This document shows, piece after piece, positions 38,970 through 58,613 of a stretch of 64,000 nt of DNA; the first letter of the stretch is position 1; each line of letters starts with the position of its first letter. Made by a program: the position numbers and the translations under genes. Under the pieces are notes generated by a model. The model was not told the origin of the DNA and did not search any database. It was given only the letters and a program-made list of their open reading frames with translations. The stretch covers positions 248,001 to 312,000 of the forward strand of contig NZ_JAAQQR010000003.1 of assembly GCF_011742555.1 (NCBI RefSeq). Direction: 5' to 3'. The DNA is from Luteibacter jiangsuensis. GTDB lineage: Bacteria > Pseudomonadota > Gammaproteobacteria > Xanthomonadales > Rhodanobacteraceae.

Positions 38970-39553
38970 GCGCGGACATGGCATGGCCCAGCCCTTTGGA
39001 AGCGCTGGTCATCGGCGCTTCCGCCGGCGGCGTGGCCGCACTGCAGACCATGCTCGGCAGCCTCCCCGGGTCGTTCCAGGCGCCGGTGTTTGTCGTGCTG
39101 CACGTGCCCAAGGATCGTCCCAGCGGCATTCCGGAACTCCTCGGAGGGTACTGCGCGTTGCCCGTGCTGGAGGCCGACGACAAGCAGCCGGTTCGGCCGG
39201 GCCACGTGTATTTCGCGCCGCCTGACTACCACCTGCTGGTGGAGAGCAGGGACGCCCTGGCGCTGTCGATGGATGAGCCGGTGCTCTTCTCGCGTCCGTC
39301 GATCGACGTGCTCTTCGAGTCCGCGGCGGCCGTTTACGACAGGGGCCTGCTCGCGATCCTGCTCACCGGCGCCAGTTCCGACGGCAGCGAAGGTGTCGCC
39401 GCCGTTCGCGCGGCAGGCGGCAAGGCCTGGATACAGTGCCCTGTCGAAGCCGCAGCCCCCGCCATGCCCAACGCCGCGCTGGCCCATGCGGGGGCCGACG
39501 CGGTCCTTCGCCTCGGCGAGATGTGTGAACGCCTCAAGGGAAGCCCCGCATGA
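38966..39553 (+). CDS. CheB methylesterase domain protein (no receiver)
   Basis: A 195-residue protein equal to the catalytic half of CheB. The triad is visible as Ser19 in IGASAGG, His46 in VVLHVPKD and Asp139 in LLTGASSDGSEG. The N-terminal receiver that controls standard CheB is missing, so control must come from a partner or there is none. It would remove methyl groups or deamidate Gln on the CheR target. The GTG start overlaps the cheR stop, and the end overlaps the next kinase gene by 4 bp. Confidence 0.92.
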   Translation: MSADMAWPSPLEALVIGASAGGVAALQTMLGSLPGSFQAPVFVVLHVPKDRPSGIPELLGGYCALPVLEADDKQPVRPGHVYFAPPDYHLLVESRDALALSMDEPVLFSRPSIDVLFESAAAVYDRGLLAILLTGASSDGSEGVAAVRAAGGKAWIQCPVEAAAPAMPNAALAHAGADAVLRLGEMCERLKGSPA

Positions 39554-43260: not shown

Positions 43261-44655
43261 ATGGCCAGATACCTGGTCTTCGCCCTGCTGGTCGGGGCAG
43301 GCTTGGCCGGTTGCGCCAGCCAGCCACTGCCCGATCTCCACGCACCCGTTCCCGGCGAGTGGCGGCACCCCGTGGCCGACGCTCCCGCAGGCGCGCCCGT
43401 CGACCTTCGCGGCTGGTGGCACAGCTTCGCCGACCCCTCCCTGGACGCGCTGGTGGATCGCGCGCTGGCCAACAACCTCGATGTGGCGCAGGCGGCGGAA
43501 CGCGTGCGCGCGGCGCGGGCGCTGCATGGCGTGGCCAGTTCGGCCCTCCTGCCGCAGCTGCACGCGAAAACCGAGGACGTGGACGCCCCGGATGCCAGGG
43601 CCTCGTATTTCGTGGCCGGATTCGACGCTGTCTGGGAGCTGGATCTCTTCGGCCGTGGCACGGCCTTGCGCCGCGCTGCCCAGGGCGATCTCGATGCGGC
43701 GGCGGCGGATCTCCAGGGCGCCAGGGTTTCCCTTGTGGCCGAGGTGGTGCGCGACTGGCTGCAACTGCGCGCCGCGCAGCAACAGTTGCAATGGTTGCAG
43801 CAGATACGCGATGCCCGCCAGCACCAACTCGATCTGGTGCAGGTTCGCGAGCGCCTGCGGCTCGCAGGCGCGGAAAGCGTGCAAAGGGCCGTCGCCGCGC
43901 TCGCGCAGGCGGACGCGGCCATGCTCGAACCGCGCGAGACGATGGACGCGAACGCACAGCGCCTGGCCGTCCTGCTCGGCACGGCGGAGCCGGACCCGGC
44001 CTGGATGACTACTGGGCCGCTTCCCACGCTGGGTGCATGGAGCCTGCAAGCCGCTCCTGCCGACCTGCTCCGTTCGCGGCCGGAAATCAGGCATGCCGAG
44101 GCCGATGTGTTGCGCGCCGCCGGTGCCGCCGGCATCGCTCACGCCGATCGCTATCCGCGCGTTGCCATCGGCGGCTCGCTGACCTGGTCGGCCAGCTTGC
44201 AGTCGAGCCGTGGTGGGGGAGCCAGCCCGGTTGCTTCCATCGGCCCGCTGATCGACATTCCGCTGTTCGACTGGGGCATGCGGGCGGCACAGGAGGATGC
44301 GAAGCGGCACGAATTGCAGGCGAGTGTGCTGGCGTACCGGCAATCGGTGCTGGAAGGCGTGGCCGACGTGGAAACCGCGCTCGGACGCCTGCAACGGCAA
44401 GGCGAGCAGGAACGGCAGTGCACCGAAGCGACGGTGGCGCTCGCGCACGCCGACAGCGCGGTGGCGAAACGTGCCGCGTTACATCTCGCCGGTGCGGACG
44501 AGGAGATCGAAAGCGCCATCGCACACGACGAGGCATCGCTGGCGCTCGTGCAGGCACAGGCCGGACGTGATCTCGCGTTCGTGTCGCTGTTCAAGGCACT
44601 TGGCGGCGCACCGCTCCCATCCGTGGATAGCGCGACCACGGAGGACCGGCACTGA
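43261..44655 (+). CDS. Outer-membrane efflux lipoprotein, TolC/OprM (NodT) type
   Basis: A 464-residue outer-membrane channel subunit. A lipoprotein signal ends at the lipobox LAGC (Cys18). Two repeated outer-membrane-efflux domains follow: the first begins WWHSFADPSLDALVDRALAN with DVAQAAERVRAA, the second begins near PADLLRSRPEIRHAEADVLR. This is the trimeric exit duct of tripartite exporters. Here its operon partners are an ABC permease, an ATPase and a periplasmic adaptor rather than an RND pump. The stop overlaps the permease start by one base (TGATG). Confidence 0.92.
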   Translation: MARYLVFALLVGAGLAGCASQPLPDLHAPVPGEWRHPVADAPAGAPVDLRGWWHSFADPSLDALVDRALANNLDVAQAAERVRAARALHGVASSALLPQLHAKTEDVDAPDARASYFVAGFDAVWELDLFGRGTALRRAAQGDLDAAAADLQGARVSLVAEVVRDWLQLRAAQQQLQWLQQIRDARQHQLDLVQVRERLRLAGAESVQRAVAALAQADAAMLEPRETMDANAQRLAVLLGTAEPDPAWMTTGPLPTLGAWSLQAAPADLLRSRPEIRHAEADVLRAAGAAGIAHADRYPRVAIGGSLTWSASLQSSRGGGASPVASIGPLIDIPLFDWGMRAAQEDAKRHELQASVLAYRQSVLEGVADVETALGRLQRQGEQERQCTEATVALAHADSAVAKRAALHLAGADEEIESAIAHDEASLALVQAQAGRDLAFVSLFKALGGAPLPSVDSATTEDRH

Positions 44656-45788
44656 TGGTCGCCCTGGCGCGCAAGACGCTCGTGCACGAATGGCGCCGCT
44701 TTCTGCCGGCGATCCTCGCGGTGGGCTTCGCGGGCCTGTTGCAGCTGTTGCAGGCTGCCCTGGTGCTGGGCATCTTCAGCAGCGCGAGCATTTACGTCAC
44801 GGGCTCGGCGGCGGACCTCTGGGTGGGCTATCCAGGTACGCAAAGCGTCAGCCTGGGGCGGTCCATCGACCCGAACGTGGAGGGGCGCCTGCTCATGGAT
44901 CCCGCGGTCGAGCGCGTCGAACCCTTCCTCTGGGTCGACGCCGACTGGCGCGGCCAGTCGGGCACGGGCGGCGAATCGGTGTACGTCTCGGGCGTCGACC
45001 CGCGTCCCGACGGGCTCGTGTTCGCGCGTGTACTGCCGCCCGCATTGCGCATGCGGTTGCGAGAGCCCGATGCCGTGATCGTCGACCAGGCCGATATGGA
45101 CAAGCTCGGCGTCAGGGTGGGAGACAGCGCCACGATCAACAGCTATCGGGTACGTGTCGTGGGCGCGAGCAGCGGCTTGCGTGCGCTCGGCGGCGTGAAT
45201 GTCGTCGCCTCGTTGGATACCGCTCGCGTGCTCGATACGGACCCCGCCGATCGCGACCGCCCGACCTACCTCGTTGCCCGGCTGCACGACCCCGCCGCGG
45301 CCGACGCGGTGGCGCGGCGAATCTCCGGAGCCCGCGGGTTCGACCGCTACGAGGTGTGGACCGCTTCCGCCTTCGCTCGCCGCTCGGTGCTCTACTGGAT
45401 GCTGGACACCGGCGCGGGCGCCGGAGTGCTCTTTCTCGCGGGCGTCGTGTTCGTGGTGGGGGCGATCATCACCAGCCAGACCCTGGTAGCCGCCGTGGCC
45501 GGTTCGGTGCGCGAATACGCCACGCTCAACGCCCTGGGCGTGGGTATGCGGGCCCTCCGCTGGGTGGTGCTGGAGCAGGCAACCTGGGTCGGTGTGTGCG
45601 GGCTGCTCTGCGCCAGTGTGTTTGGCGCCGCGTTGCTCGCCCTCGCGCGGGGACAGGATGTGCCGGTGGTGCTGGACGTGCCGGTCGCGCTCGCGTGCGC
45701 GGTGTTGACGATGGGACTCACCACGGTTTCCGGGCTCGCGGCGATTCGCAGCCTTCGCCACGCCGATCCGGCGAGTCTGCTGCGATGA
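44655..45788 (+). CDS. FtsX/MacB-type ABC permease (DevC-like)
   Basis: A 377-residue inner-membrane permease with one N-terminal helix (about 18-42), a large periplasmic domain with ADLWVGYPGTQS and VYVSGVDPRP, and a C-terminal FtsX core of three helices (about 255-370) with YATLNALGVGMRALRWVVLE. The single four-helix layout of about 380 residues is closer to cyanobacterial DevC than to MacB, whose ATPase is fused. It should take substrates from the periplasm or outer leaflet. The stop overlaps the ATPase start (ATGA). Confidence 0.87.
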   Translation: MVALARKTLVHEWRRFLPAILAVGFAGLLQLLQAALVLGIFSSASIYVTGSAADLWVGYPGTQSVSLGRSIDPNVEGRLLMDPAVERVEPFLWVDADWRGQSGTGGESVYVSGVDPRPDGLVFARVLPPALRMRLREPDAVIVDQADMDKLGVRVGDSATINSYRVRVVGASSGLRALGGVNVVASLDTARVLDTDPADRDRPTYLVARLHDPAAADAVARRISGARGFDRYEVWTASAFARRSVLYWMLDTGAGAGVLFLAGVVFVVGAIITSQTLVAAVAGSVREYATLNALGVGMRALRWVVLEQATWVGVCGLLCASVFGAALLALARGQDVPVVLDVPVALACAVLTMGLTTVSGLAAIRSLRHADPASLLR

Positions 45789-46528
45789 TGCCCACCACCT
45801 CCGCCACCCGCGTGACACTTCGGGCCGAAGACATCGGCAAGGCATTCATGTCCGGCAAGGTGCGCACGCCGGTGCTCGACGGTTTGTCGCTATCGGTGCG
45901 GGCGGGCGAATTGACCTTGATCTCCGGGCCGTCCGGCTGCGGCAAGAGTACGTTGCTCGCCATCCTCAGCGGCTTGCAGAGGGTGGACACCGGCCGTGTG
46001 TTCGCGCTGGACCAGCGGCTGGACGATCTGGATCCGAGGGCCCTGGAGCGCTTCCGGTTGCTGCACACCGGTTTCGTTTTCCAGGGCTTCAATCTTTTTC
46101 CCGCGCTGACCGCGCGCGAGCAGGTGGAGTTGCCGCTGCACTACCTGGGCGTCCCTCGGCGCGAGGCGCGCGAGCGCGCGGCGCGTTCGCTCGAAGAAGT
46201 GGGGCTCGCGCATCGCATGGCATTGAGGCCGGCGGAGCTTTCCGGTGGCGAGAAGCAGCGCGTGGCGATCGCTCGCGCGTTGTCGAAAGAGCCGGCCCTG
46301 CTGTTCGCCGACGAGCCGACGAGCGCACTCGACGCCGCCAGCGGGCAGATCGTCATCGACATGCTGCACCGTATCGCCAGGGTGCATGGCACCACCGTGC
46401 TGTGCGTAAGCCACGATCCGCGCCTCATCGGGCACGCCGACCGCGTGTTGTCGATGGAGGACGGACGGATCCTCAACGACCGGCGCGAAACCACGCCAGG
46501 TGTCCCGACGGAAGGTCTGGTTCCATGA
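45785..46528 (+). CDS. LolD/MacB-type ABC exporter ATPase
   Basis: A 247-residue ATPase with Walker A GPSGCGKST, the Q-loop TGFVFQGFNLFPALTAREQV, the signature LSGGEKQRVAIARAL, Walker B LLFADEPTSALD and the switch His in LCVSHDPR. It is of the mechanotransmission type (LolD/MacB/DevA), which works with FtsX-like permeases. It overlaps the permease stop and the adaptor start by 4 bp each. Confidence 0.92.
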   Translation: MMPTTSATRVTLRAEDIGKAFMSGKVRTPVLDGLSLSVRAGELTLISGPSGCGKSTLLAILSGLQRVDTGRVFALDQRLDDLDPRALERFRLLHTGFVFQGFNLFPALTAREQVELPLHYLGVPRREARERAARSLEEVGLAHRMALRPAELSGGEKQRVAIARALSKEPALLFADEPTSALDAASGQIVIDMLHRIARVHGTTVLCVSHDPRLIGHADRVLSMEDGRILNDRRETTPGVPTEGLVP

Positions 46529-47454
46529 CGCATTCCATCTTTCGCCACGCGGCCGCGCTTGCGTTTGCGACGACCCTCCTTGCGGGCTGCGACAGCCATC
46601 ACGACAAGACTCCGCCAACGCAGGCGCCTGCTCCTTCCTATGCGGCCGTGGCCCGTGGCCGCGTCGACGTGGAAGGCGGCCTGCTGAGCCTGGGCATGCC
46701 CCGCGAGGGCACCCTTGCGGAAGTGAACGTGCATGAAGGCGACCACGTGCGGCGCGGCCAGCCGCTGGCGTCGCTGGATCTGGAGCCGGGCACGCTTGCC
46801 GTCGCGGCGGCACAGGCGGAACTGGACCAGGTGCAGGCGCAGCTGAAGCTCCTCGGCGACAAGCTGGCCACGGCGAAAGAGCGTGCGGGGCGCCTCGCCG
46901 CGGCGGAGCGGGCCGGTGCCGGCGACGGCCACAGCGCCGACGAGGCGCGCGCGTTGGCGACCGAACTCGCCGCGCAGCAGACCGCCATGCGTGCGGAGGT
47001 CGCAGGCGCCGGGCAGAAGCTCGCCGCCGCACGCTTCGAGCTTGCACGCCGCACGTTACGTTCCCCGATGGATGCGGACGTGCTGCGTGTGACCGCCCAG
47101 CCGGGCGCGAGCGTCTCGCCGCAGGGCGGCCCCTTGTTCGTGTTGCTGCCGCGCACAGCGAGGATCGTGCGCGCCGAGCTGAGCGAGGCCTACGCCGACG
47201 CGGTACATCCCGGCATGTCGGCGCTCGTGACGGCGGACGCCTCGGCGGACACCGACCCGTGGCCGGCTCGTGTGCTGCGCGTCGGCACGGTAGTGGGACC
47301 TTCCTCCCTCGAGGACGATCCCCAGGTACGTGCCAATAGCCGCACGGTGGAGTGCGTGCTGGCCCTGGACGGCGGGCTGACGCCACGCGTGGGCGAGCGA
47401 GTGATGGTGCGCTTCGGCCCCGGGGATTCGCGGATTCATGCGAAAGGCGAATGA
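46525..47454 (+). CDS. Periplasmic adaptor lipoprotein (HlyD/DevB type)
   Basis: A 309-residue membrane-fusion protein. A lipoprotein signal ends at LLAGC (Cys22). A biotinyl-lipoyl half-domain (PREGTLAEVNVHEGDHVRRG) precedes a helical hairpin (about 95-170) and the second half (RSPMDADVLRV), followed by a beta-barrel domain (ARIVRAELSEAYADAVHPGM). It should bridge the permease and the outer-membrane duct. It is the last member of the exporter set, but the next gene starts only 45 bp downstream on the same strand, so transcription may continue into the esterase and aminotransferase genes. Confidence 0.9.
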   Translation: MTHSIFRHAAALAFATTLLAGCDSHHDKTPPTQAPAPSYAAVARGRVDVEGGLLSLGMPREGTLAEVNVHEGDHVRRGQPLASLDLEPGTLAVAAAQAELDQVQAQLKLLGDKLATAKERAGRLAAAERAGAGDGHSADEARALATELAAQQTAMRAEVAGAGQKLAAARFELARRTLRSPMDADVLRVTAQPGASVSPQGGPLFVLLPRTARIVRAELSEAYADAVHPGMSALVTADASADTDPWPARVLRVGTVVGPSSLEDDPQVRANSRTVECVLALDGGLTPRVGERVMVRFGPGDSRIHAKGE

Positions 47455-47499: not shown

Positions 47500-48336
47500 G
47501 TGATCCGCCAAGCCGAATTCTTTCTCGAAGGCGACAGCAGGGGCGTCCTGCTGATCCATGGACTGACCGGCACCCCTACGGAAATGCGGATGCTCGGCAA
47601 GGGACTGAACAAGGCCGGCTTCACCGTCCACGGCATGCAGCTGGCCGGCCACTGCGGCGACGTGGAAGACCTGCTGGCCACCGGCTGGCGCGACTGGTAC
47701 GCCAGCGTGCAGCGCGCGGCCGACGCGATGCTGACGAAGGTCGACACGCTGTTCGTGGGTGGCCTTTCGATGGGCGCGCTGCTCGCTCTGAAACTGGCGG
47801 CCGACCGCCCGGGGCAGATCGCCGGCGTGGGCGTCTACGGTGCCACCTTTCGCTACGACGGTTGGAGCGTGCCCTGGACGGCGAACCTCTCGTTTCTGCT
47901 GCCCATGTTCAAGCGTCTCGGCATCGGACGTAACCGCGCCTTCCTCGAACAGCCGCCCTACGGCTTGCGCGACGAGCGCCTTCGCGAACAGGTGAGCGCG
48001 GCGATGCGCAGCGGCGACAGCACGATGGCCGGGCTGCTCGGCAATCCCTGGCATTCCCTGGCCGACCTTTACCTGCTGTCGGCACAGGTGCGCCGGCAAC
48101 TGCGTGACGTGACCTCACCCTGCCTGGTGGCGCACGCGAGCAACGACGACATCGCCAGCGTGCGCAATGCCGAACTGGTGCTGCGCGAGGTGAACGCACC
48201 CGCGGAGTTGCTGCTGCTCGACGACAGCTACCACATGATCACGATCGACAAGCAACGGCGCACCCTGATCGACCGCTCCGCGCGGTTCTTCGACACGATT
48301 GCCCCCGCGCAGACGCTTTCCGCGATGGCGGGCTGA
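47500..48336 (+). CDS. Alpha/beta-hydrolase (carboxylesterase/lipase type)
   Basis: A 278-residue cytoplasmic esterase similar to Est30-type carboxylesterases. It has the oxyanion segment LIHGLTGTPTEMRMLGK, the nucleophile elbow GGLSMG with Ser90, and a late acid and His (SNDDIAS and DDSYHMITID). No signal peptide is present. The start is GTG (47500). It begins a tight run with the two small membrane proteins and the aminotransferase, so it may hydrolyse an acyl or thioester intermediate of the neighbouring pathway; that is inference. Confidence 0.85.
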   Translation: MIRQAEFFLEGDSRGVLLIHGLTGTPTEMRMLGKGLNKAGFTVHGMQLAGHCGDVEDLLATGWRDWYASVQRAADAMLTKVDTLFVGGLSMGALLALKLAADRPGQIAGVGVYGATFRYDGWSVPWTANLSFLLPMFKRLGIGRNRAFLEQPPYGLRDERLREQVSAAMRSGDSTMAGLLGNPWHSLADLYLLSAQVRRQLRDVTSPCLVAHASNDDIASVRNAELVLREVNAPAELLLLDDSYHMITIDKQRRTLIDRSARFFDTIAPAQTLSAMAG

Positions 48337-48341
48337 CGATC

Positions 48342-48701
48342 ATGACGCCCCTGATTCTCGGTCTCTGGATCGCCAACGTGGCGTTCGACACGGTGGGGCA
48401 GCTTGCATTCAAGGCCGCCGCAAGCGGGACGGAGGAAGATGGAGGTCTGGCGCATTGGCGCGCCATGGCCATGCGCCCCTGGATCTGGCTCGGCATCGGC
48501 TGCTACGGGGTCGAATTCCTCGTGTGGATCGCCTTCCTTTCGCTGGTGCCGCTGTCCGATGGCGTGCTGCTGGGTTCCATCAACATCGTGGCGATCATGC
48601 TCGCGGGCCGGTGGCTGTTTGGCGAGAAGCTCACCGGGCTTCGCGTCGTCGGCATCGGGCTGGTGAGCCTGGGCGTCGCGATCGTGGGGGCAGGCGGATG
48701 A
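48342..48701 (+). CDS. Small EamA/SMR-type membrane protein 1
   Basis: A 119-residue protein with four transmembrane helices and the small-multidrug-resistance/EamA pattern FDTVGQLAFKAA at the start and SINIVAIMLAGRWLFGEKLT late. The closest functional analogues are paired subunits such as ArnE/ArnF, which flip lipid-linked aminosugars. It begins 5 bp after the esterase gene and overlaps its partner by 4 bp, so the two probably form a heterodimer. Confidence 0.8.
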   Translation: MTPLILGLWIANVAFDTVGQLAFKAAASGTEEDGGLAHWRAMAMRPWIWLGIGCYGVEFLVWIAFLSLVPLSDGVLLGSINIVAIMLAGRWLFGEKLTGLRVVGIGLVSLGVAIVGAGG

Positions 48702-49096
48702 GGCGCTTCTACCTGTTCGGATTCCTGCTGCTGATGGCGTTCGACACGCTTGCGCAGCTGTCGTTCAAGCTGGCCGGCAGCCATGCGCTGCCGGTGACGG
48801 CGGACGCCGCCTGGCTGGCGCGCGTGTTCGCGCAGCCGTGGGTCTACGGGGCCGTCGCCGGCTACATCGGCGCCTTCTTCACCTGGATGACCTTGCTGCG
48901 CCACGCACCCATCGGCCCGGCCTTCGCGGCGTCGCATCTGGAAGTGGTGAGCGTGATGCTGCTTTCCGCGTGGTTGCTGCACGAGCCGTTGACCTTGCCG
49001 CGCGTACTCGGCGCGGCCACGATCGTGGCCGGCATCCTGTGCCTTGCCGCCGCGGAGCGGGAGACGCTGGTGGTTGCGCCCGGCCCGGCCGGATGA
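48698..49096 (+). CDS. Small EamA/SMR-type membrane protein 2
   Basis: A 132-residue four-helix protein with FDTLAQLSFKLAGSHALP and LEVVSVMLLSAWLLHEPLTL, matching its upstream partner in pattern. The pair resembles ArnE/ArnF-like flippases or drug exporters. ATGA overlaps join it to the gene before and to the aminotransferase gene after. A role in moving the product, or its lipid carrier, across the inner membrane is inferred from the pairing and the context. Confidence 0.8.
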   Translation: MRRFYLFGFLLLMAFDTLAQLSFKLAGSHALPVTADAAWLARVFAQPWVYGAVAGYIGAFFTWMTLLRHAPIGPAFAASHLEVVSVMLLSAWLLHEPLTLPRVLGAATIVAGILCLAAAERETLVVAPGPAG

Positions 49097-50373
49097 GTGC
49101 CATGCGCAGGCAACCGTTTCGCGAGGTTCCCCCGACCGATGGCCTGCCGCTCCGTCTTGCCGATCTGCTGCCGGGCTCCAGCGACCTGACGGGGACGCTC
49201 GCCGCGCAGCTCGGCACGCCCCCCCTGCTGTTGACCTGCTCCGGCACGGCCGCGTTCATGGTGGCCTTGCGCACGCTATCCGAACGCGCGCCACAGCGCC
49301 GCGACGTGGTGGTGCCCGCGTACACATGCCCCCTCGTGGCGATCGCGGTGCACGCGCTGGGTTTGCGCTTGCGACTTTGCGATACGCGCGCGGGCCACTT
49401 CGACATGGACGAAACCGAGCTGTCCGCCATCTGCAACGAAGAAACGCTCGCAGTGGTGCCCACGCACCTCGCCGGGCTCGTCGCCGATGTGGATGCGGCA
49501 AGCCGTATTGCCCGGCGCGTGGGTGCGTGGGTGATCGAAGACGCCGCACAGGCGTTGGGCGCGCTCGACCATGGGCACAGCGTCGGATTGCGCGGCGACA
49601 TCGGCTTCTTCAGCCTGGCGGCTGGCAAAGGTTTGTCGATCTACGAAGGTGGCCTTCTGGTGTCGCGGGACGAGACGCTTCGCGATGCGATGCGCCGCAC
49701 GCATGAGGCGATGCTGCCGTACGACCGCCGTTGGGAATGGCGGCGCAGCCTGGAACTGCTCGGTCTGGCGGCCCTCTATCGTCCGGTGGGCCTGACCGTC
49801 GCGTACGGCATGCCGTTGAAGCGACGCTTGCGGCGCGGTGACACCGTTGCTGCGGTCGGGGACGACTTTCCCGCACGCATTCCCATGCATCGCGTGGGCA
49901 CCTGGCGCCAGGGTGTGGGGGCGAAGGCGGCAGCGCGCTGGCCCGGCTTCCTCGCCGAACGCCGCGCGAGGGCGGCCCGGCGCATCGACCGCCTGCGGCG
50001 GATCGAGGGCCTGGAGGTGCTGTTGCCGCGCGAAGGCAGCGAGGGAAGCTGGCCCTTCCTGCTGCTGCGTTTTCCCGACGCCGCACGCTGCAACGTGGTG
50101 CTGGGAGACCTGTGGTGCGCCGGTGTCGGTGTCAGCCGGCTGTTCGTGCATGCATTGACCGACTACACCTACCTCGCCGATCGCGTGCCCCGGGTGCCGA
50201 CACCTCATGCGCGCACGTTCGCGCAATGCACGGCTACGTTGAGCAACAGCGCATGGCTGGACGAAGCGACCTTCGAGCGGGTGGCCAAGGCGATCGAGCG
50301 TGCCCTTACGCAGGCTGAAACGCCGGATACGTCTCCGTGCGCTGCGCGATCGCCGCAAGCAGGCGCTCGTTGA
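49093..50373 (+). CDS. DegT/DnrJ/EryC1-type PLP aminotransferase
   Basis: A 426-residue PLP enzyme of the sugar-aminotransferase fold. It has the cofactor-contacting CSGTAAFMVAL near the start, VVVPAYTCPLVAIAV, the PLP-pyridine Asp150 (VIEDAAQALG) and the Schiff-base Lys179 (LAAGKGLSIYEGG). Family members usually put an amino group on a nucleotide-linked sugar, as ArnB does, but no sugar-nucleotide enzymes are near. The C-terminus overlaps the convergent arginase-like gene by 68 bp. It is the last gene of the + strand run. Confidence 0.87.
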   Translation: MSAMRRQPFREVPPTDGLPLRLADLLPGSSDLTGTLAAQLGTPPLLLTCSGTAAFMVALRTLSERAPQRRDVVVPAYTCPLVAIAVHALGLRLRLCDTRAGHFDMDETELSAICNEETLAVVPTHLAGLVADVDAASRIARRVGAWVIEDAAQALGALDHGHSVGLRGDIGFFSLAAGKGLSIYEGGLLVSRDETLRDAMRRTHEAMLPYDRRWEWRRSLELLGLAALYRPVGLTVAYGMPLKRRLRRGDTVAAVGDDFPARIPMHRVGTWRQGVGAKAAARWPGFLAERRARAARRIDRLRRIEGLEVLLPREGSEGSWPFLLLRFPDAARCNVVLGDLWCAGVGVSRLFVHALTDYTYLADRVPRVPTPHARTFAQCTATLSNSAWLDEATFERVAKAIERALTQAETPDTSPCAARSPQAGAR

Positions 50374-51193
50374 GCCGCTGCTGTTGCGCCTGCCACAACG
50401 CCAGCTTCTCCGTGTCCACAGGCGGCTGTGCGTCCCTGGCCGAGAGCAGGCGTTTCCACAGGCTGCGATAGCGGTAGTGGGACACCTCGCCGGTGATGTC
50501 GCTGCCCACGAGCCCGCTGCGCAGGCTGTCGATGATGGCGAGTGCGTCTTCGAGCCGGAACACGCCCTGGTCCCAGTTCGTGCGGGCCACGTCTTCGGCG
50601 AACACATCCTTGTCGATGGAAAGGTAGGCCGGTAGCGGGCGGTGGGCCTGGTATTCGCGGAACGCCTCGATCAGTGCCGCCGCGCTGTCGAACCCCCGGA
50701 ACGCGTGGCCGAGTCCGGAGCGGGCCGCCCACGAAACGTCGACGCCCACGCTCCAGTATGTCAGCCGCCCGTCGCGCAGCGGCGCGCGATAGTTCTCCCA
50801 GGCGTGGGCCGCGCCGATGTCCCCGGAAGTGATGCCCAGCACGTGCACATGGGCGACCCTGGGCACCATGGCCACCCGCCGCACCCACGAACCGCAATGC
50901 ACGCCGAACGGGAACAGCATGTTGTCCGGATGGTTGTCGAGCACGACGACCTGGAACGTTTCACTGCCCGGTACCAGCGCGATCAGGGGCCAGCTGAGGT
51001 GGTGGAAGTCGCCACTGCCGAGCAGTACAGGGCCGCGCAGGGGGAGCTCCGCCAGCACGAGTTCGAAGCGCCTGAGGGTACGCAGCGAACAACCGAAGCG
51101 CAGGGCTTCCTGCCAATGGCCCAGCGGCACCACGAGACTTTCGGCGGGCGGGATGACCGAGTGATCGATGTCCAGGACCGTGACGCGGTTCAT
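50306..51193 (-). CDS. Arginase/ureohydrolase-fold protein
   Basis: A 295-residue protein with the metal-site layout of the arginase/agmatinase/deacetylase superfamily: GDFHHL (His64 or His65) for the GGDH motif, LDNHPDN (Asp86, His88, Asp90) for DAHxD, and SIDKDV (Asp194, Asp196) for SxDxD. All expected ligands are present, though spacing and flanking sequence differ from true arginases, so the substrate is unlikely to be arginine. It may hydrolyse a guanidino, amidino or formimino bond. The start overlaps the FemAB-like stop by 4 bp. It is the last gene of the six-gene - strand operon. Confidence 0.7.
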   Translation of the reverse strand: MNRVTVLDIDHSVIPPAESLVVPLGHWQEALRFGCSLRTLRRFELVLAELPLRGPVLLGSGDFHHLSWPLIALVPGSETFQVVVLDNHPDNMLFPFGVHCGSWVRRVAMVPRVAHVHVLGITSGDIGAAHAWENYRAPLRDGRLTYWSVGVDVSWAARSGLGHAFRGFDSAAALIEAFREYQAHRPLPAYLSIDKDVFAEDVARTNWDQGVFRLEDALAIIDSLRSGLVGSDITGEVSHYRYRSLWKRLLSARDAQPPVDTEKLALWQAQQQRLNERLLAAIAQRTETYPAFQPA

Positions 51194-52257
51194 GCGCAGA
51201 CACCCACACGACCGTTGGCCAACGGCTCGCCTTCGAAGTGACGCGCGAACCGGCGCAGCAGCATCCTTGTCACCGGGTTGCGAAGGTATACGGCGTGTCG
51301 CGTATAGCTGAGCCGCGCGCCGAGCCGCGTCTTCACTTCCGGGTCCGTCCATCCGGCTACGTAGTGGCTCAAGCCGCGCTGGCGCGCATATTCCAGGTTG
51401 TGCATCCAGCTCACGGCGTAGAGGTTGTGCTCGCGTGCCTGCGGGTAGGCGAAACCGATGTACTTGTCGATCAGCATACCGCCGTATTCGTAGCAGAGGT
51501 TCCAGCCGATCAGACCGTCGGCGCTTCGGTACATGAAGACGACGCCGTTGCTGTGCGCGTCGCGCAGTACGGCCGTGAAGAAGGCCTTGCTGAGGAGATC
51601 GAAGTGGATCTCGCTCTGCGCATGCACGTTGCGATAGAGCGCGTAGCATTCGTCGATCGCATCGTCGTCGTCGAAGTACGCGGAGCCCGTGGCCAATGCC
51701 TCCACCTGCACGCGGTCCCGTGCCTTCAGCTTGCGCCGGACATCTTTACGCCGGCTCGACGACAGCCGGGCGATGTACTCGTCGACGGAGTCGAAGTCGA
51801 TCGGCACCCAGGCCAGCGGCATGCCTTCGAGGATGACGAAGCCGCGCGCGGCCAGGGCCGCTGCGAAGGCACCCGTCTTCGCGTTCGCGGAGGCATTCAG
51901 CAGCGGCGAGTCGACAGCCAGGTCCTTGACGATAAGCAGCGGGCACTCGCGGCCATGCGCTTCCAGCAGTTCAGCCACCAGTTCGTCCGCCGCGGGACGC
52001 ACTGGTACGGGTGCGTACTCGGTGACCGTGCAGCCGGCGAAGCGCACGCGCCACTGGAGCAGACGCCCCCACAGGCGATACAGCGGCAGCGACGTGATCC
52101 GCCGGCGCAAGGCTTCGTCGGCCGTGGTGAGTATGTCGAAGCGCGTGTGGAAGGTTGGCATGCCGGACGCGGAGCGACCGGCCGTGAACCCTTCGGGCGG
52201 ATGTTCCAGGAAGTGTTCGACGAGCGACACGGGCTCCAGGGCGGTGCAGAACGGCAT
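51190..52257 (-). CDS. GNAT/FemAB-like acyl- or aminoacyl-transferase
   Basis: A 355-residue protein with two GNAT-like halves as in FemAB/peptidoglycan-bridge-forming enzymes: the central segment DEYIARLSSSRRKDVRRKLK is characteristic, followed by DECYALYRNVHAQSEIHFDL, GVVFMYRSADGLIGWNLCYE and DKYIGFAYPQAREHNLYAVS. Such proteins transfer an acyl or amino-acyl group to an amine. Next to an ACP and a ketoacyl synthase, an acyl-ACP donor is plausible. The Met at 52257 gives a natural start; the frame upstream overlaps the KS gene and lacks family sequence. It begins 11 bp after the KS gene. Confidence 0.78.
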   Translation of the reverse strand: MPFCTALEPVSLVEHFLEHPPEGFTAGRSASGMPTFHTRFDILTTADEALRRRITSLPLYRLWGRLLQWRVRFAGCTVTEYAPVPVRPAADELVAELLEAHGRECPLLIVKDLAVDSPLLNASANAKTGAFAAALAARGFVILEGMPLAWVPIDFDSVDEYIARLSSSRRKDVRRKLKARDRVQVEALATGSAYFDDDDAIDECYALYRNVHAQSEIHFDLLSKAFFTAVLRDAHSNGVVFMYRSADGLIGWNLCYEYGGMLIDKYIGFAYPQAREHNLYAVSWMHNLEYARQRGLSHYVAGWTDPEVKTRLGARLSYTRHAVYLRNPVTRMLLRRFARHFEGEPLANGRVGVCA

Positions 52258-52268
52258 GGCTGTAATAC

Positions 52269-53495
52269 TCAGATCCGTTTCAATGCGAGTACGGCGTTCA
52301 GTCCGCCGAACGCAAAGGAGTGACTCAGCGCCGCGCGAACCGGCCAATCGCGCGCGGTGTGCGGCACGTAATCGAGGTCGCACGCGGGGTCGGGTTGGTC
52401 GAGGTTGGCGGTAGGCGGTACGACGCCTTCGGTCATGGCACCAAGCACGGCGACCAGTTCCAGCGCACCGGATGCCCCGAGCGCGTGACCGTGCATCGAC
52501 TTGGTGGACGACACGGCGAGGTGTCGCGCGTGCGACCCGAACACCTGGTGGATGGCGCGAGTTTCGCTGACGTCATTTGCCTGCGTGCCGGTGCCGTGGG
52601 CATTGATGTAGTCGATGTCTTCGACGTTGAGCCGAGCCTCCGACAGCGCTTGGGTGATGGCCGCGGCGGCGCCGGCTGGGGTCGGCGCCACGATATCGCC
52701 GGCGTCGGCACTCATGCCCACCCCGGCGAGCGCGGCCAACGGCACGGCGCCCCGTGCGTGCGCGTGTTCCGCGGATTCGAGCACGAAGACCCCGGCGCCT
52801 TCGCCGAGTACCAGGCCCCGGCGGTTGGCGCTGAAGGGGCGGCAGGTATCGTCGGAAAGTACGCGCATCGCCTCCCATGCCCGGAGGGCGGCATACGTGA
52901 AGCACGATTCCGTGCCGCCGGCGATCGCCACGTCGGCAAGGCCCGCGCGAATCAGCAAGGCGGCCTGCGCTATCGCATGGTTGGACGAAGCGCAGGCGCT
53001 GGCCACGCCGAAGGCGGGGCCGCGCAGGCCGTGCGCGATGCTGATCTGGCTTGCCGGCGCATTCGCCATCATGCGCACGATGGTGAGCGGGTGCACCCTC
53101 GGCGCATGTTCCGCGTAGAGTCGCTGCGACTGCTCGTCGTGCGATGTCTCGCCACCCGCACCCGTACCGATCACCACCGCCGTGCGCGACCCGATACCGT
53201 TCGACCCGAAATCGATGCCCGACTGTGCAATGGCTTCACGCGCGGCGACCATGGCGAACTGGGAGGTTCGGTCGAGCATGGGCAGAACGCGCTCGTCGAA
53301 CCACATCGACGGATCGAAGCTTTCCGGCACCTGCGCCGCGACCTTCACCCGCAGCTGGCTGGCCTGTGCGTGACGCAGCGGTCCGATGGCGCTGCGCCCT
53401 TCCCGAAGGTTCCGCCACAGGGGGCCCGCGCCCTCGCCGAACGGGCTGACGGCACCCATGCCGGTGACGACGACGCTTTGCGCACCAGGACTCAC
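52269..53495 (-). CDS. Beta-ketoacyl-ACP synthase, FabF-like
   Basis: A 408-residue thiolase-fold condensing enzyme. The active-site triad is intact: Cys168 in GVASACASSNHA, His300 in INAHGTGTQAND and His337 in STKSMHGHALGASG. FabF-type Thr is replaced by His335 in that last motif. The end LSHSFAFGGLNAVLALKR is standard. Its place between a dedicated ACP and a FemAB-like gene, away from fab genes, points to a specialised pathway. It overlaps the ACP gene by 4 bp. Confidence 0.93.
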   Translation of the reverse strand: MSPGAQSVVVTGMGAVSPFGEGAGPLWRNLREGRSAIGPLRHAQASQLRVKVAAQVPESFDPSMWFDERVLPMLDRTSQFAMVAAREAIAQSGIDFGSNGIGSRTAVVIGTGAGGETSHDEQSQRLYAEHAPRVHPLTIVRMMANAPASQISIAHGLRGPAFGVASACASSNHAIAQAALLIRAGLADVAIAGGTESCFTYAALRAWEAMRVLSDDTCRPFSANRRGLVLGEGAGVFVLESAEHAHARGAVPLAALAGVGMSADAGDIVAPTPAGAAAAITQALSEARLNVEDIDYINAHGTGTQANDVSETRAIHQVFGSHARHLAVSSTKSMHGHALGASGALELVAVLGAMTEGVVPPTANLDQPDPACDLDYVPHTARDWPVRAALSHSFAFGGLNAVLALKRI

Positions 53496-53776
53496 ACCGC
53501 CGCCCCGGTACCGTCCGGCCGCGCCGCCAGTGCGGCCTGCACGGCGCTTATCAGGTGTCCGACGGAATCGGACTCGAAGTTCGCACCCTCATCGGGAAAG
53601 TGTATGTCGAAGTGCTCCTCGAGTTCGAAGATCAGTTCGATGGCGTCCAGGGACGATATGCCTAAATCCTTGAGCGTGGCCTCCGGAACGAGCGATGCGG
53701 GTTCCACGTGGGTCTGCTGGGCCACGATGGCTATGATCTGTTCGCCGACATGGTCGGCGAGTGGCGAGACGTTCAT
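53492..53776 (-). CDS. Dedicated acyl carrier protein
   Basis: A 94-residue acidic four-helix carrier protein. The phosphopantetheine attachment site is Ser42 in KDLGISSLDAIELIFELEE, a variant of the usual DSL motif (Ser-Ser-Leu). It differs from the housekeeping ACP in having a longer tail (AALAARPDGTGAAV). It is coupled to the KS gene by a 4-bp overlap, so it most likely holds the acyl chain for that enzyme. The class III aminotransferase gene ends 29 bp upstream. Confidence 0.92.
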   Translation of the reverse strand: MNVSPLADHVGEQIIAIVAQQTHVEPASLVPEATLKDLGISSLDAIELIFELEEHFDIHFPDEGANFESDSVGHLISAVQAALAARPDGTGAAV

Positions 53777-53805
53777 GGTGCATCCTCCGGTGGACGCGCT
53801 CGGCT

Positions 53806-55209
53806 TCAGGCACGCTTTGCGCGCGTCAGCAGCTGGTCGAGCAGGGCGATTGCCAAGTCGATTTCCTCGTGCGTGATGTCGAGCGACGGCGCAAGCGTGA
53901 TCACGTTCTTGTACCAACCGCCCACATCCAGCACGAGGCCAATCTTCTTGCCGTTGTGCTCGAGATCACCGGCCAGGCCGATATCCACCATGCGGTCGAG
54001 CAGGGCCTTGTTCGGCGTGAACCCGTCCTCGGTGCAGATCTCGGCACGGAGCGCCAGACCGAGGCCGTCCACGTCGCCGATTTCCTTGTGGCGCTTCTGC
54101 AGGTCGCGCAGGCCATCGAGGAAATGGGCGCCCTTGGCCGGCACGCTGGTCTCGTAGTCCAGCTCGTAGCCCATGCGGATGACTTCCAGGCCCACGGCCG
54201 TACCGAGCGGGTTCGAGTTGAACGTGGAGTGCGTGGAACCCGGGGGGAACACCACGGGATTGATCAGTTCCTCGCGCGCCCAGAGGCCGGACAGCGGATT
54301 GAGGCCGTTGGTGAGCGCCTTGCCGAACACGAGCACGTCGGGCGTCACGCCGAAATGTTCGATCGACCAGAGCTTGCCGGTGCGCCAGAAGCCCATCTGG
54401 ATCTCGTCCACCACCATGAGGATGCCGTACTGGTCCAGCACATTCTTCAGGTCACGGAAGAAGTTCATGGGCGGGATCACGTAGCCGCCAGTGCCCTGGA
54501 TCGGCTCCACGTAGAACGCGGCATATTCCGCCTGGTTCACCTTCGGGTCCCACACGCCGTTGTATTCGGTCTCGAACAGACGCGCGAACTGGCGCACGCA
54601 GGCGTCCGAGTATTCCTCGGCCGTCATGCCCTTCGGGCGGCGGAACGGGTACGGGAACGGAATGAACATCGCGCGCTCGCCGAAGTGGCCGAAGCGGCGG
54701 CGATAGCGGTAACTGGAGGTGATGGACGAGGCGCCCAGGGTGCGGCCGTGGTAGCCGCCCTCGAACGCGAACATCAGGCTCTTGCCGTTGGACGCATTGC
54801 GGACGAGCTTCAGCGAGTCCTCGATGGCCTGCGCGCCGCCCACGTTGAAATGCACGCGGCCCTTGCGCCCGAACTTGCTTTCCACGTCTTGCGCAATGGT
54901 CTTGGCGAGCTGGATGCGGCCCTCGTGGAGGTACTGGCTGGCCACCTGCGGCAGCACGTCGATCTGGCGCTTCAGCGTATCGTTCAGGCGCTGATTGCCG
55001 TAACCGAAATTGACCGCGGAATACCACATCTGCAGGTCGAGGAAGGGCACGTCCGCCGTGTCGTACATCCAGCTGCCTTCGCAGCGGCGGAAGATCTTCG
55101 GCGGGTCCACGTAATGCACGGTGTCGCCGAAGGAGCTGTACTGGGCTTCGTCGCGCAGCAGCTGCGCGTCGTCGATGGCAGCGGAAGCGTGCTTGTCGAA
55201 TACGTTCAT
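53806..55209 (-). CDS. Class III PLP-dependent aminotransferase
   Basis: A 467-residue omega-aminotransferase-fold enzyme. It has the substrate/PLP segments NVGGAQAIEDSLKLVRNAS and AFEGGYHGRTLGASS, the Asp of VVDEIQMGFWRTG (Asp268) and the Schiff-base Lys297 in FGKALTNGLNPLSG. Relatives transfer amino groups to aldehydes or keto acids (ornithine, GABA, beta-alanine, acyl-linked ketones). With an ACP and a KS downstream it may aminate a ketoacyl intermediate or supply an amino-acid unit. The gap to the HAD phosphatase gene is 14 bp. Confidence 0.9.
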   Translation of the reverse strand: MNVFDKHASAAIDDAQLLRDEAQYSSFGDTVHYVDPPKIFRRCEGSWMYDTADVPFLDLQMWYSAVNFGYGNQRLNDTLKRQIDVLPQVASQYLHEGRIQLAKTIAQDVESKFGRKGRVHFNVGGAQAIEDSLKLVRNASNGKSLMFAFEGGYHGRTLGASSITSSYRYRRRFGHFGERAMFIPFPYPFRRPKGMTAEEYSDACVRQFARLFETEYNGVWDPKVNQAEYAAFYVEPIQGTGGYVIPPMNFFRDLKNVLDQYGILMVVDEIQMGFWRTGKLWSIEHFGVTPDVLVFGKALTNGLNPLSGLWAREELINPVVFPPGSTHSTFNSNPLGTAVGLEVIRMGYELDYETSVPAKGAHFLDGLRDLQKRHKEIGDVDGLGLALRAEICTEDGFTPNKALLDRMVDIGLAGDLEHNGKKIGLVLDVGGWYKNVITLAPSLDITHEEIDLAIALLDQLLTRAKRA

Positions 55210-55223
55210 GAGGGTTCCGTAAA

Positions 55224-55931
55224 TCAGGCGAGGCTGTCTTGGATGGCGGGTAGCGTGAGGTGTTCTTCCAGCGTTCCATCGAGCAACGCGGGCAGAAGCG
55301 CCAGCGCGTCTTCGAAGCCGGTGATGGGCATGTAGGGGATACCAGCGGCGCGGCAGTGCTCGATCAGGCGGTGCTTGGCGAACACGTAGTCGACGTGGTC
55401 GGCGGCGCAGAAGTCCGACGCGCCGTCGCCGATGAGGAGGGTCTTGCGGCCGTTGGATGCGCGGCTGCGCTCGACGCAGGCGCATTTGCAGGTGCCGCTG
55501 CCGCAGCCTTCGGCCTGGAAGGGCGAGCTGAAACTCCAGCGCTGCGGCGGGGTACCCGGCGCCAGGTGGTTCGCCGCCACGGGCAGATCGTCCAGGCCAT
55601 GGCGGCGCAGGATGCGATGGATGGCGTAGTCTAGGCCGTCGCTCACGATGTGCACGGGCACGTCCAGTTCGCGGGCCCTCGCCACGAAGGCGGGGAACGC
55701 ATGGTCGATGCGCACGTTGGCGAGTTCGGCGTCCAGTTCTTCCGCGCTCATGTCGAGCAGCGCCACCTGTCCGCCCATACATGCGCGGGAGCCGATGAGG
55801 CCGGCGCGCCAGTCGCGTTCCAGTGCCTCCCAGCCCGGGCGCCCGTAACGATCCAGCAGGGAGTCGATCACGTCTTCCACGGAAATGGTGCCGTCGAAGT
55901 CGCAGAGGATGGTCCAGTCGCGCAGGCTCAT
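55224..55931 (-). CDS. MtnX/SerB-like HAD-IB phosphatase
   Basis: A 235-residue haloacid-dehalogenase phosphatase of subfamily IB. Motif I is CDFDGTI (nucleophile Asp11, Asp13), motif II is VSDGLDY, the conserved Lys is in GRKTLLIG and motif IV is GDGASD (Asp169, Asp173). A cysteine cluster, CGSGTCKCAC (Cys143, 148, 150, 152), may hold a metal. Family members act on phosphoserine, phosphoethanolamine or MtnX substrates. It is the first gene of the six-gene operon and could make an amino alcohol such as serine or ethanolamine for the pathway. Confidence 0.85.
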   Translation of the reverse strand: MSLRDWTILCDFDGTISVEDVIDSLLDRYGRPGWEALERDWRAGLIGSRACMGGQVALLDMSAEELDAELANVRIDHAFPAFVARARELDVPVHIVSDGLDYAIHRILRRHGLDDLPVAANHLAPGTPPQRWSFSSPFQAEGCGSGTCKCACVERSRASNGRKTLLIGDGASDFCAADHVDYVFAKHRLIEHCRAAGIPYMPITGFEDALALLPALLDGTLEEHLTLPAIQDSLA

Positions 55932-58605: not shown

Positions 58606-58613
58606 GGTCCGCC

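What the first reader, a model, noticed from the sequence alone, without database searches (positions are those of the whole stretch)
47500..55931. Convergent ten-gene locus for an unknown amino-acyl product
Seen: a - strand operon of HAD phosphatase, class III aminotransferase, ACP, ketoacyl synthase, FemAB/GNAT-like and arginase-fold genes faces a + strand run of esterase, two SMR-type proteins and a DegT aminotransferase, nearly all coupled by 4-bp overlaps. Catalytic residues look intact throughout. Known: each family makes or moves acyl or amino groups, and paired SMR proteins can flip lipid-linked amino compounds (ArnE/ArnF). Inference: synthesis of an N-acylated or amine-bearing lipid. 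I do not know a described pathway with this set.
Basis: partly seen in the sequence, partly recalled or inferred. Interest (0 to 1): 0.8.

Follow-up and report, generated by a model that had tools for sequence, protein, structure and literature searches.

The report
Widespread putative aminolipid gene cluster
A block of about fourteen neighbouring genes, with relatives in soil, plant and skin bacteria and on plasmids, looks like an undescribed pathway for an amine-carrying envelope compound, probably a lipid, whose identity still has to be shown by experiment.

Summary
The ten genes are real and correctly placed. Four exporter genes directly upstream (43372-47454) travel with them in relatives, so the window holds about 14. 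The set is conserved across Lysobacterales and recurs, rearranged, in other Proteobacteria and on plasmids of Rhizobium, Agrobacterium, Bartonella and Roseomonas, often beside a two-component system or MipA. Eight Stenotrophomonas loci have both halves on one strand; in 17 of 20 same-genus genomes ARG and DegT lie 42-121 kb or a contig apart, yet share one presence pattern. The window's copy is Frateuria-like, and its two native sites are emptied or reduced.

New readings: the FemAB-like protein folds like aminoacyl-tRNA-dependent transferases (streptothricin-type synthases, MprF, FemX); the arginase-fold protein keeps ureohydrolase metal ligands; the class III 'aminotransferase' lacks the usual donor-binding arginine. 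Interchangeable KS/ACP, desaturase and cyclopropane-synthase genes point to an acyl chain. Best explanation (0.4): a stress-linked pathway for an aminoacylated or amine-bearing envelope lipid, in logic like MprF plus Arn but a member of neither. The product is unproven; a secreted metabolite is the main rival. Seven literature searches found no described pathway.

The parts
43372..44655 (+). OMF: TolC-type outer membrane efflux protein (OEP)
   Evidence: PF02321 E 1e-27; lies before EST in many relatives
44655..45788 (+). MacB/FtsX-like ABC permease
   Evidence: PF02687 3.5e-13, PF12704 2.5e-9
45785..46528 (+). ABC ATPase
   Evidence: PF00005 1.5e-32
46648..47454 (+). MFP: HlyD-type periplasmic adaptor
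   Evidence: PF13437 1.9e-13
47500..48336 (+). EST: alpha/beta hydrolase, GLSMG nucleophile motif
   Evidence: PF12146 8.4e-20; conserved Ser/Asp/His motifs
48342..48701 (+). SMR1: EamA/ArnE-like small membrane protein
   Evidence: PF00892 4.8e-6 (27.3 bits, cut-off 28.2); ArnE model 6.9e-7, far below cut-off
48698..49096 (+). SMR2: EamA/ArnF-like small membrane protein
   Evidence: PF00892 1.2e-7; ArnF model 1.1e-7, far below cut-off
49093..50373 (+). DegT: DegT/DnrJ/EryC1/StrS-type PLP enzyme, diverged C-terminal half
   Evidence: PF01041 6.8e-39 over residues 36-206 only
50306..51193 (-). ARG: ureohydrolase (arginase) fold metallohydrolase
   Evidence: AF2 pLDDT 91.7; the 50 listed Foldseek hits are ureohydrolase-superfamily proteins; metal-ligand motifs
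51190..52257 (-). FEM: FemAB-like double-GNAT protein, aminoacyl-tRNA-dependent transferase fold
   Evidence: PF04339 3.1e-11; AF2 pLDDT 92; top Foldseek hits Sbb17/Sba18, L-PGS/MprF, FemX
52269..53495 (-). KS: FabF-like ketoacyl synthase
   Evidence: PF00109 1.2e-51; fabF model 439 bits, cut-off 494; Cys/His/His motifs conserved
53492..53776 (-). ACP: acyl carrier protein
   Evidence: PF00550 6.1e-12
53806..55209 (-). AT3: class III PLP enzyme without the usual donor-binding Arg
   Evidence: PF00202 1.7e-69; T240/T438
55224..55931 (-). HAD: MtnX-like HAD-IB phosphatase with a conserved Cys motif
   Evidence: TIGR01489 96.4 bits, cut-off 81.55; motifs

Best explanation
A mobile, probably stress-linked biosynthetic cluster that makes and exposes an amine-bearing, probably aminoacylated, envelope lipid or amphiphile. 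Proposed order: AT3 (a PLP enzyme that does not look like a standard 2-oxoglutarate transaminase) plus the HAD phosphatase make a small amine or amino-alcohol building block; KS/ACP here, and a desaturase or cyclopropane synthase in other lineages, tailor the acyl part; FEM moves an amino acid from aminoacyl-tRNA onto this acceptor; ARG hydrolyses a guanidino group on the product, for example arginyl to ornithinyl; DegT acts in the same sub-module as FEM-ARG; the SMR1/SMR2 pair flips the product across the inner membrane; EST removes or recycles it; the TolC-MacB-like pump releases it or the stressor. A two-component system and MipA control it in many relatives. Shown: gene content, predicted folds, motifs, conservation, co-inheritance, and a Frateuria-like copy in the window's species. 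Inferred: every substrate, the direction and order of each step, the regulation, and the envelope-stress role.
For: One unit: in the 63 of 81 stretches of at least 19 kb, FEM is in 63 (it was the query), ARG 62, EST/SMR1/SMR2 57, DegT 54, HAD/AT3 51, KS/ACP 50. ARG is in 32 and DegT in 31 of 61 genomes, the same set apart from G023, where DegT is a fragment. All 16 of 398 genomes with ARG are among the 26 of 398 with AT3. FEM+ARG and DegT are missing together from two separate sites in G005. FEM fold: the best 26 Foldseek hits are aminoacyl-tRNA-dependent transferases or LPG-synthase-type proteins, E 5.8e-12 to 4.5e-9; the first enzyme named with acetyl-CoA is at 3.8e-8; ATE_C (arginyl-tRNA transferase) matches weakly, E 0.024. 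ARG fold: the 50 listed hits are all ureohydrolase-superfamily proteins; H64, H65, D86, H88, D90, D194, D196 are invariant in 26 sequences. Lipid link: desaturase and CFA synthase inside the operon in Rhizobium acidisoli and Phyllobacterium, a desaturase in Sinorhizobium. Stress link: a histidine kinase in 40 and MipA in 19 of the 63 stretches; MipA of Pseudomonas aeruginosa is polymyxin-induced and binds polymyxins (PMC10936184, abstract). Luteibacter mycovicinus contains an unnamed aminolipid (PMC11165876, passage).
Against: No product is known and no activity was tested. The window genome has a separate strong MprF-type hit (PF09924, E 2.4e-101, elsewhere), so FEM is not needed for ordinary aminoacyl-PG. 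TM-scores are moderate (FEM 0.47-0.57 for the best 26 hits; ARG 0.40-0.56 for the listed hits, query-normalised). FEM and ARG are not in the stretches read for reduced versions that keep HAD-AT3-EST, so aminoacylation may not be the core step. In the window itself no two-component system or MipA adjoins the set; the genome's one MipA hit is on another contig. The exporter could mean a secreted compound. KS/ACP are missing from the eight one-strand Stenotrophomonas and the chromosomal Xanthomonas stretches, and no KS orthologue was found in genome G057 at E 1e-90.
Confidence: 0.4

Rival explanations
1. The locus makes a secreted small molecule (antibiotic-like metabolite or signal) that FEM decorates with an amino acid, as its fold relatives Sbb17/Sba18 are described to do with streptothrisamine; the TolC-MacB-like pump exports it and the SMR pair is an accessory exporter.
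For: The closest solved folds to FEM are streptothricin-type peptide synthases; exporter genes are in 29-32 of 63 stretches and follow the operon in Agrobacterium; plasmid carriage.
Against: Desaturase, CFA synthase and KS/ACP accessories point to an acyl chain. The exporter is not in the stretches read for the eight one-strand Stenotrophomonas loci, the four Xanthomonas/[Pseudomonas] boreopolis chromosomal loci, L148 or L152; Rhizobium acidisoli has a different FtsX-permease ABC set upstream. Two-component systems and MipA fit envelope homeostasis better (inference).
Confidence: 0.25
2. An Arn-like route: DegT makes a 4-amino sugar, SMR1/SMR2 (ArnE/ArnF-like) flip its undecaprenyl-phosphate form, and it ends on LPS or a polysaccharide.
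For: SMR1 and SMR2 hit the ArnE and ArnF models weakly and DegT hits sugar aminotransferase models, all below cut-off; a Roseomonas plasmid has an undecaprenyl-diphosphate phosphatase beside DegT and L092 a GT9 glycosyltransferase in the DegT position.
Against: No glycosyltransferase, sugar-nucleotide enzyme or ArnT-like transferase among the ten genes or the four exporter genes. DegT is absent from the X. prunicola and X. vasicola loci and from the Rhizobium and Agrobacterium stretches although the rest stays. DegT matches PF01041 over half its length only.
Confidence: 0.14
3. One reading: KS/ACP make a special beta-ketoacyl chain, AT3 aminates it on the carrier, and FEM acts as an N-acyltransferase to give a beta-amino or N-acyl lipid.
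For: KS with intact motifs and ACP; minimal stretches KS-HAD-AT3-EST (L160, L163) and ACP-KS-HAD-AT3-EST (L162) exist. AT3 lacks the usual donor-binding Arg, as might suit a carrier-bound substrate.
Against: KS orthologues are in 22 of 61 genomes against AT3 in 34; the HAD phosphatase has no role; FEM's best fold matches use aminoacyl-tRNA.
Confidence: 0.13
4. Two unrelated operons that face each other by chance; the shared themes are coincidence.
For: In 18 of 31 genomes DegT is more than 40 kb from ARG or on another contig; modules are rearranged freely; ARG occurs without DegT in some Xanthomonas and on rhizobial plasmids.
Against: ARG and DegT have the same presence pattern in 61 relatives. 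Eight Stenotrophomonas loci have members of both halves on one strand; the window genome and G002, which hold a whole cluster, lack the native pieces at two other sites; plasmid operons mix members of both halves.
Confidence: 0.03

Closest known systems
MprF / aminoacyl-phosphatidylglycerol synthase with flippase
   Same: FEM has the double-GNAT aminoacyl-tRNA transferase fold; separate small membrane proteins could replace the flippase domain.
   Different: FEM has no membrane domain and belongs to another sequence family (PF04339); extra AT3, HAD, ARG, DegT; the genome already has a PF09924 protein elsewhere.
ArnBCADTEF (L-Ara4N modification of lipid A)
   Same: A DegT-type enzyme with two ArnE/ArnF-like SMR proteins, and often a two-component system nearby.
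   Different: None of the sugar-nucleotide, glycosyltransferase or ArnT steps; DegT dispensable in several lineages.
Streptothricin-type aminoacyl-tRNA-dependent peptide synthases (Sbb17, Sba18)
   Same: Closest solved folds to FEM (E 5.8e-12).
   Different: Profile similarity is not significant (E 0.63 and 0.94); different gene context.
Peptide arginase OspR and other ureohydrolases
   Same: ARG has the ureohydrolase fold and the DxHxD and SxDxD metal motifs; OspR is a precedent for arginine-to-ornithine conversion inside a larger molecule (PMC10028609, passages).
   Different: Below the Pfam Arginase cut-off (17.8 against 22 bits); the OspR structure 8BRP is not among the 50 hits listed; I saw no RiPP enzyme among the 14 genes.
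Fatty-acid/polyketide-type clusters with KS and ACP
   Same: FabF-like KS and ACP encoded together.
   Different: KS/ACP are accessory: absent from many members.

Membership tests
MprF-type aminoacyl-lipid synthase system | aminoacyl-tRNA-dependent double-GNAT transferase fold | tested here: met
   AF2 model pLDDT 92; L-PGS, A-PGS, MprF and FemX among the top 26 Foldseek hits, TM 0.47-0.57
MprF-type aminoacyl-lipid synthase system | sequence membership in LPG_synthase_C (PF09924) | tested here: not met
   FEM matches PF04339, with ATE_C weakly at E 0.024, and not PF09924 at E up to 10; the PF09924 hits in this genome are on C19 and C17, the locus is on C14
MprF-type aminoacyl-lipid synthase system | aminoacyl-tRNA and a lipid as substrates | not testable with these tools
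   needs enzyme assay and lipidomics
Arn (L-Ara4N) pathway | ArnB-type aminotransferase plus ArnE/ArnF pair | tested here: inconclusive
   hits to ArnB, ArnE and ArnF models, all far below their cut-offs
Arn (L-Ara4N) pathway | ArnA, ArnC, ArnD, ArnT in the cluster | tested here: not met
   none among the ten genes or the four exporter genes; not searched in the rest of the genome
Ureohydrolase superfamily (ARG) | ureohydrolase fold | tested here: met
   the 50 listed Foldseek hits are ureohydrolase-superfamily proteins; profile matches arginase E 1.7e-4, guanidinopropionase 1e-3
Ureohydrolase superfamily (ARG) | motifs GGDHS, DAHXD, SXDXDXXDP (as listed in PMC10028609) | tested here: inconclusive
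   GSGDFHH, DNHPD and SIDKD present, but GGDHS altered and the final DP absent; E236 invariant in 9 sequences but not in the 90% list for 26
Class III aminotransferases (AT3) | PF00202 fold with PLP Lys and Asp | tested here: met
   PF00202 E 1.7e-69; K297 and D268 conserved
2-oxoglutarate-dependent class III transaminases (AT3) | Arg/Glu pair for the donor carboxylate (role recalled) | tested here: not met
   Thr438 for Arg against 7vno and 9wqz, Thr240 for Glu/Asp against 7vno, 9wqz and 2eo5; both Thr in 31 of 31 other AT3 proteins aligned
Type II PKS/FAS-type cluster | obligate KS and ACP | tested here: not met
   KS orthologues in 22 of 61 relatives versus AT3 in 34; no KS/ACP in the eight one-strand Stenotrophomonas and the chromosomal Xanthomonas stretches

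The most novel reading that the evidence does not exclude
A new class of bacterial envelope aminolipid made by a dedicated aminoacyl-tRNA-dependent transferase whose arginyl (or other guanidino) head is then trimmed by its own lipid ureohydrolase, built on an amine from an unusual PLP enzyme/phosphatase pair, flipped by a split SMR flippase, induced by envelope stress, and spread as a partly plasmid-borne module among Proteobacteria.
Probability: 0.22. Interest if true: 0.88.

Novelty: new variant of a known kind. Interest (0 to 1): 0.62.

Why it matters
If true, many plant- and soil-associated Proteobacteria, and some opportunists, carry an unrecognised way of putting amines on their surface, separate from Arn and MprF. 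It would give a genetic handle on unnamed 'aminolipids' of taxonomic descriptions and a testable link between envelope stress sensing and lipid remodelling. Even if the product turns out to be a secreted metabolite, the gene set is undescribed in the papers I could search.

Tried and rejected
Considered and set aside: KS/ACP as the core (accessory by distribution); a RiPP peptide-arginase role (no RiPP enzyme among the 14 genes); the convergent layout as meaningful (it varies); chance adjacency. Serinol-type head groups (AT3+HAD on a triose phosphate) and AcvB/PA0919-like roles for EST are recalled ideas that I did not test. Literature searches aimed at the set: 0 papers; 7; 2; 3; 9; 10; 1; I saw listings, and opened one of these papers (PMC10580965, passages on MprF/LysX). 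Searches were for MipA, aminolipids and peptide arginases. PMC9426598 (12 of 31 passages shown) describes a polymyxin-responsive regulon with a MipA/OmpV gene and a macrolide exporter; the words aminotransferase and arginase do not occur in its main text.

Weak points: the two-component and MipA counts come from tblastn with a few queries at E 1e-8 in stretches of limited length, so they may include unrelated kinases or miss diverged ones, and I have no chance expectation for them; the MipA family is also found in 2 of 14 control genomes. The search for related loci kept 80 of 192 relatives. Gene calls are from my own codon-usage script. The 61 relatives are related to each other, so matching presence patterns are not independent events, and 'different contig' can be an assembly break. 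For KS I dropped 3 of 25 hits (43-45% identity; G041, G046 and a second one in G035) as general FabF-type. The node joining the window with G002 has support 0.28; the node of these with Frateuria terrea has 0.999. Direction of transfer is inferred.


Full report
What is there. The window lies in a 4.33-Mb genome of 20 contigs; the closest named relative found is Luteibacter sp. SG786 (FEM 94%). On the + strand are an alpha/beta hydrolase (EST), two small EamA/ArnE-ArnF-like membrane proteins (SMR1, SMR2) and a DegT-type PLP enzyme. On the - strand, read from the right, are an MtnX-like HAD phosphatase (HAD), a class III PLP enzyme (AT3), an ACP, a FabF-like ketoacyl synthase (KS), a FemAB-like protein (FEM) and an arginase-fold protein (ARG). 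Half of the same-strand junctions (4 of 8) are 4-bp overlaps, and the two facing operons overlap by 68 bp at their ends. Four more + strand genes directly upstream (OMF, MacB-like permease, ABC ATPase, HlyD adaptor; 43372-47454) belong with the set, because they adjoin it in about half of the relatives (29-32 of 63 stretches).

Conservation. The search for related loci with FEM gave 192 relatives in named genomes, of which 80 were kept: Luteibacter, Frateuria, Rhodanobacter, Dyella, Fulvimonas, Oleiagrimonas, Stenotrophomonas, Xanthomonas and others. In the 63 of 81 stretches (these 80 plus one plasmid) that are at least 19 kb, FEM (the query) is in 63, ARG 62, EST, SMR1 and SMR2 57, DegT 54, HAD and AT3 51, KS and ACP 50, a histidine kinase 40, a response regulator 37, exporter genes 29-32, MipA 19. 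Layouts differ. Six loci, mostly titled Rhodanobacter, read MipA, HAD-AT3, KS-ACP, FEM-ARG, DegT-SMR2-SMR1-EST, exporter, two-component system. Eight Stenotrophomonas loci, six of them titled S. maltophilia, have two-component system-EST-SMR1-SMR2-DegT-HAD-AT3-FEM-ARG on one strand and no KS/ACP. The convergent form is therefore one layout of one gene set.

Co-inheritance without adjacency. Among 61 relatives, ARG is in 32 and DegT (E below 1e-100) in 31, the same genomes except G023, which has a DegT fragment beside ARG. EST is in those 32 plus G005, G009 and G019; AT3 is in 34, that is those 35 without G030; KS orthologues are in 22, all of them genomes with ARG. Of the 31 genomes with a full DegT, ARG and DegT start within 5 kb in 13, are 41.7-121 kb apart on one contig in 12, and are on different contigs in 6; of the 20 that are of the window's genus, 17 have them apart. 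In G008 the layout is two sites: two-component system-EST-SMR1-SMR2-DegT, and about 43 kb away MipA next to HAD-AT3-FEM-ARG. In G005 DegT is missing at the first site and FEM+ARG at the second, while the rest stays; G009 also lacks FEM+ARG beside HAD-AT3. So FEM, ARG and DegT look like one sub-module. The link is not absolute: ARG occurs without DegT in X. prunicola and X. vasicola and in the Rhizobium and Agrobacterium stretches.

The window's copy was probably acquired whole. In the window genome the first native site holds only the two-component system and a second EST (58% identical), and the second has no HAD, AT3, FEM, ARG or MipA between its usual neighbours; the same is seen in G002. 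A tree of ARG+FEM puts the window, SG786 and G002 with Frateuria terrea (support 0.999) and away from the other genomes of the genus. AT3 is 95% identical to Frateuria terrea (G027) and 86-87% to the congeners other than SG786 (100%) and G002 (92%), whereas a SufS-like gene at the second site is 87-97% identical to five congeners and 76-80% to four genomes of other genera. That genomes with a whole cluster lack the native pieces is good evidence that they work together; the direction of transfer is inferred.

Wider distribution. A scan of 398 genomes of the phylum found AT3 (E at most 1e-130) in 26 and ARG (E at most 1e-8) in 16, all 16 among the 26. The contexts include ARG-SMR1-SMR2 and HAD-AT3-EST-FEM plus a kinase and NtrC-type regulator (L148); HAD-AT3-ARG-SMR-EST-FEM-SMR plus kinase and regulator (L152); and exporter-HAD-EST-SMR1-SMR2-DegT facing ARG-FEM-AT3 (L155). 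Of the ten genomes with AT3 but no ARG I read seven contexts: six keep HAD and EST near AT3, with KS in three of them (ACP too in one); the seventh has AT3 alone. On plasmids AT3 (E at most 1e-120) occurs in 34 and ARG (E at most 1e-10) in 44 of 72,556 records. The Rhizobium acidisoli operon is two-component system-HAD-AT3-ARG-SMR-fatty acid desaturase-EST-FEM-SMR-cyclopropane synthase, with MipA beside it; Agrobacterium has two-component genes divergent from HAD-AT3-ARG-SMR-EST-FEM-SMR-TolC-permease-ABC-adaptor; Roseomonas and Aureimonas have a glutamate-1-semialdehyde-aminomutase-like protein near HAD-ARG-EST-FEM and no AT3 in the stretch.

What the parts are. FEM: AlphaFold2 pLDDT 92. The 26 best Foldseek matches are aminoacyl-tRNA-dependent transferases or LPG-synthase-type proteins (Sbb17, Sba18, L-PGS, A-PGS, MprF, FemX), ahead of acetyl-CoA enzymes, with TM-scores of 0.47-0.57; sequence profiles alone give no significant solved relative. 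ARG: pLDDT 91.7; the 50 listed structural matches are ureohydrolase-superfamily proteins (metformin hydrolase, formimidoylglutamase, agmatinase, arginase, proclavaminate amidinohydrolase, guanidinopropionase and others; TM 0.40-0.56), and the metal-ligand motifs GDFHH, DNHPD and SIDKD are conserved. A peptide arginase that converts arginine inside a larger molecule is a precedent (PMC10028609, passages). AT3 is very conserved (mean column identity 88% over 9 sequences) and keeps Lys297 and Asp268, but has Thr where 7vno and 9wqz have the C-terminal Arg, and Thr for Glu/Asp in the 'EPIQG' motif, in 31 of 31 other AT3 proteins. I take this as evidence against a standard glutamate/2-oxoglutarate transaminase (the role of the Arg is recalled); the aminomutase-like protein of Roseomonas lacks that Arg too.

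Most likely working. Shown: the set, its predicted folds, its conservation and its co-inheritance. Inferred: AT3 and HAD make an amine acceptor; FEM adds an amino acid from tRNA; ARG trims a guanidino group; DegT adds to the same sub-module; SMR1/SMR2 flip the product; EST turns it over; acyl-chain enzymes (KS/ACP, desaturase, CFA synthase) are interchangeable accessories, which is the main reason to think of a lipid. The frequent two-component system and MipA suggest envelope stress: MipA of Pseudomonas aeruginosa is polymyxin-induced and binds polymyxins (PMC10936184, abstract), and an unnamed aminolipid is reported in Luteibacter mycovicinus (PMC11165876, passage). Against: no activity is known; the genome has its own MprF-type protein; in the window no two-component system or MipA adjoins the set, and the genome's one MipA hit is on another contig; FEM-ARG are not in the reduced stretches read; and the exporter would also suit a secreted metabolite.

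Verdict. It works like MprF/Arn in logic but fails tested membership features of both. Seven full-text searches of an open-licence library showed no described pathway with this set, which is not proof of absence.

Noticed in passing
G000:C13:92170-95228 (L167:6171-9229): A two-component system (RR, 2CSK_N kinase) with a second EST paralogue (58% identical) stands alone at the native Luteibacter site, without SMR1, SMR2 or DegT.
   Followed up: yes
G000:C19:108245-109111: Strong LPG_synthase_C (MprF-type) hit in a 907-aa open frame elsewhere in the window's genome.
   Followed up: partly
L174:6268-7611, L175:6430-7767: Roseomonas and Aureimonas plasmids carry a HemL/GntE-like class III protein near HAD-ARG-EST-FEM, with no AT3 in the stretch.
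   Followed up: partly
window 55224-55931: The HAD phosphatase family has a conserved GC.sGTCKC cysteine motif, unusual for a phosphatase and possibly a metal site.
   Followed up: no
window 40779-42347: GH30-type glycoside hydrolase left of the exporter genes, downstream of CheB and a response regulator/kinase hybrid (38966-40683).
   Followed up: no
window 57100-59804: DUF1800-DUF1501 gene pair right of the locus, and a phosphoesterase-family protein at 60328-62364.
   Followed up: no
L079: A record titled Bacillus subtilis SK7B5 holds a Stenotrophomonas-like version of the locus, probably a contaminated assembly.
   Followed up: no
L092:7107-8279: A GT9 (heptosyltransferase-family) gene lies in the DegT position in a Salinisphaera MAG.
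   Followed up: partly
L182-L184 (G030): One relative has the pieces scattered over three contigs (DegT-SMR2-SMR1; FEM-ARG; KS-ACP-EST) and no AT3 at E 1e-100.
   Followed up: partly
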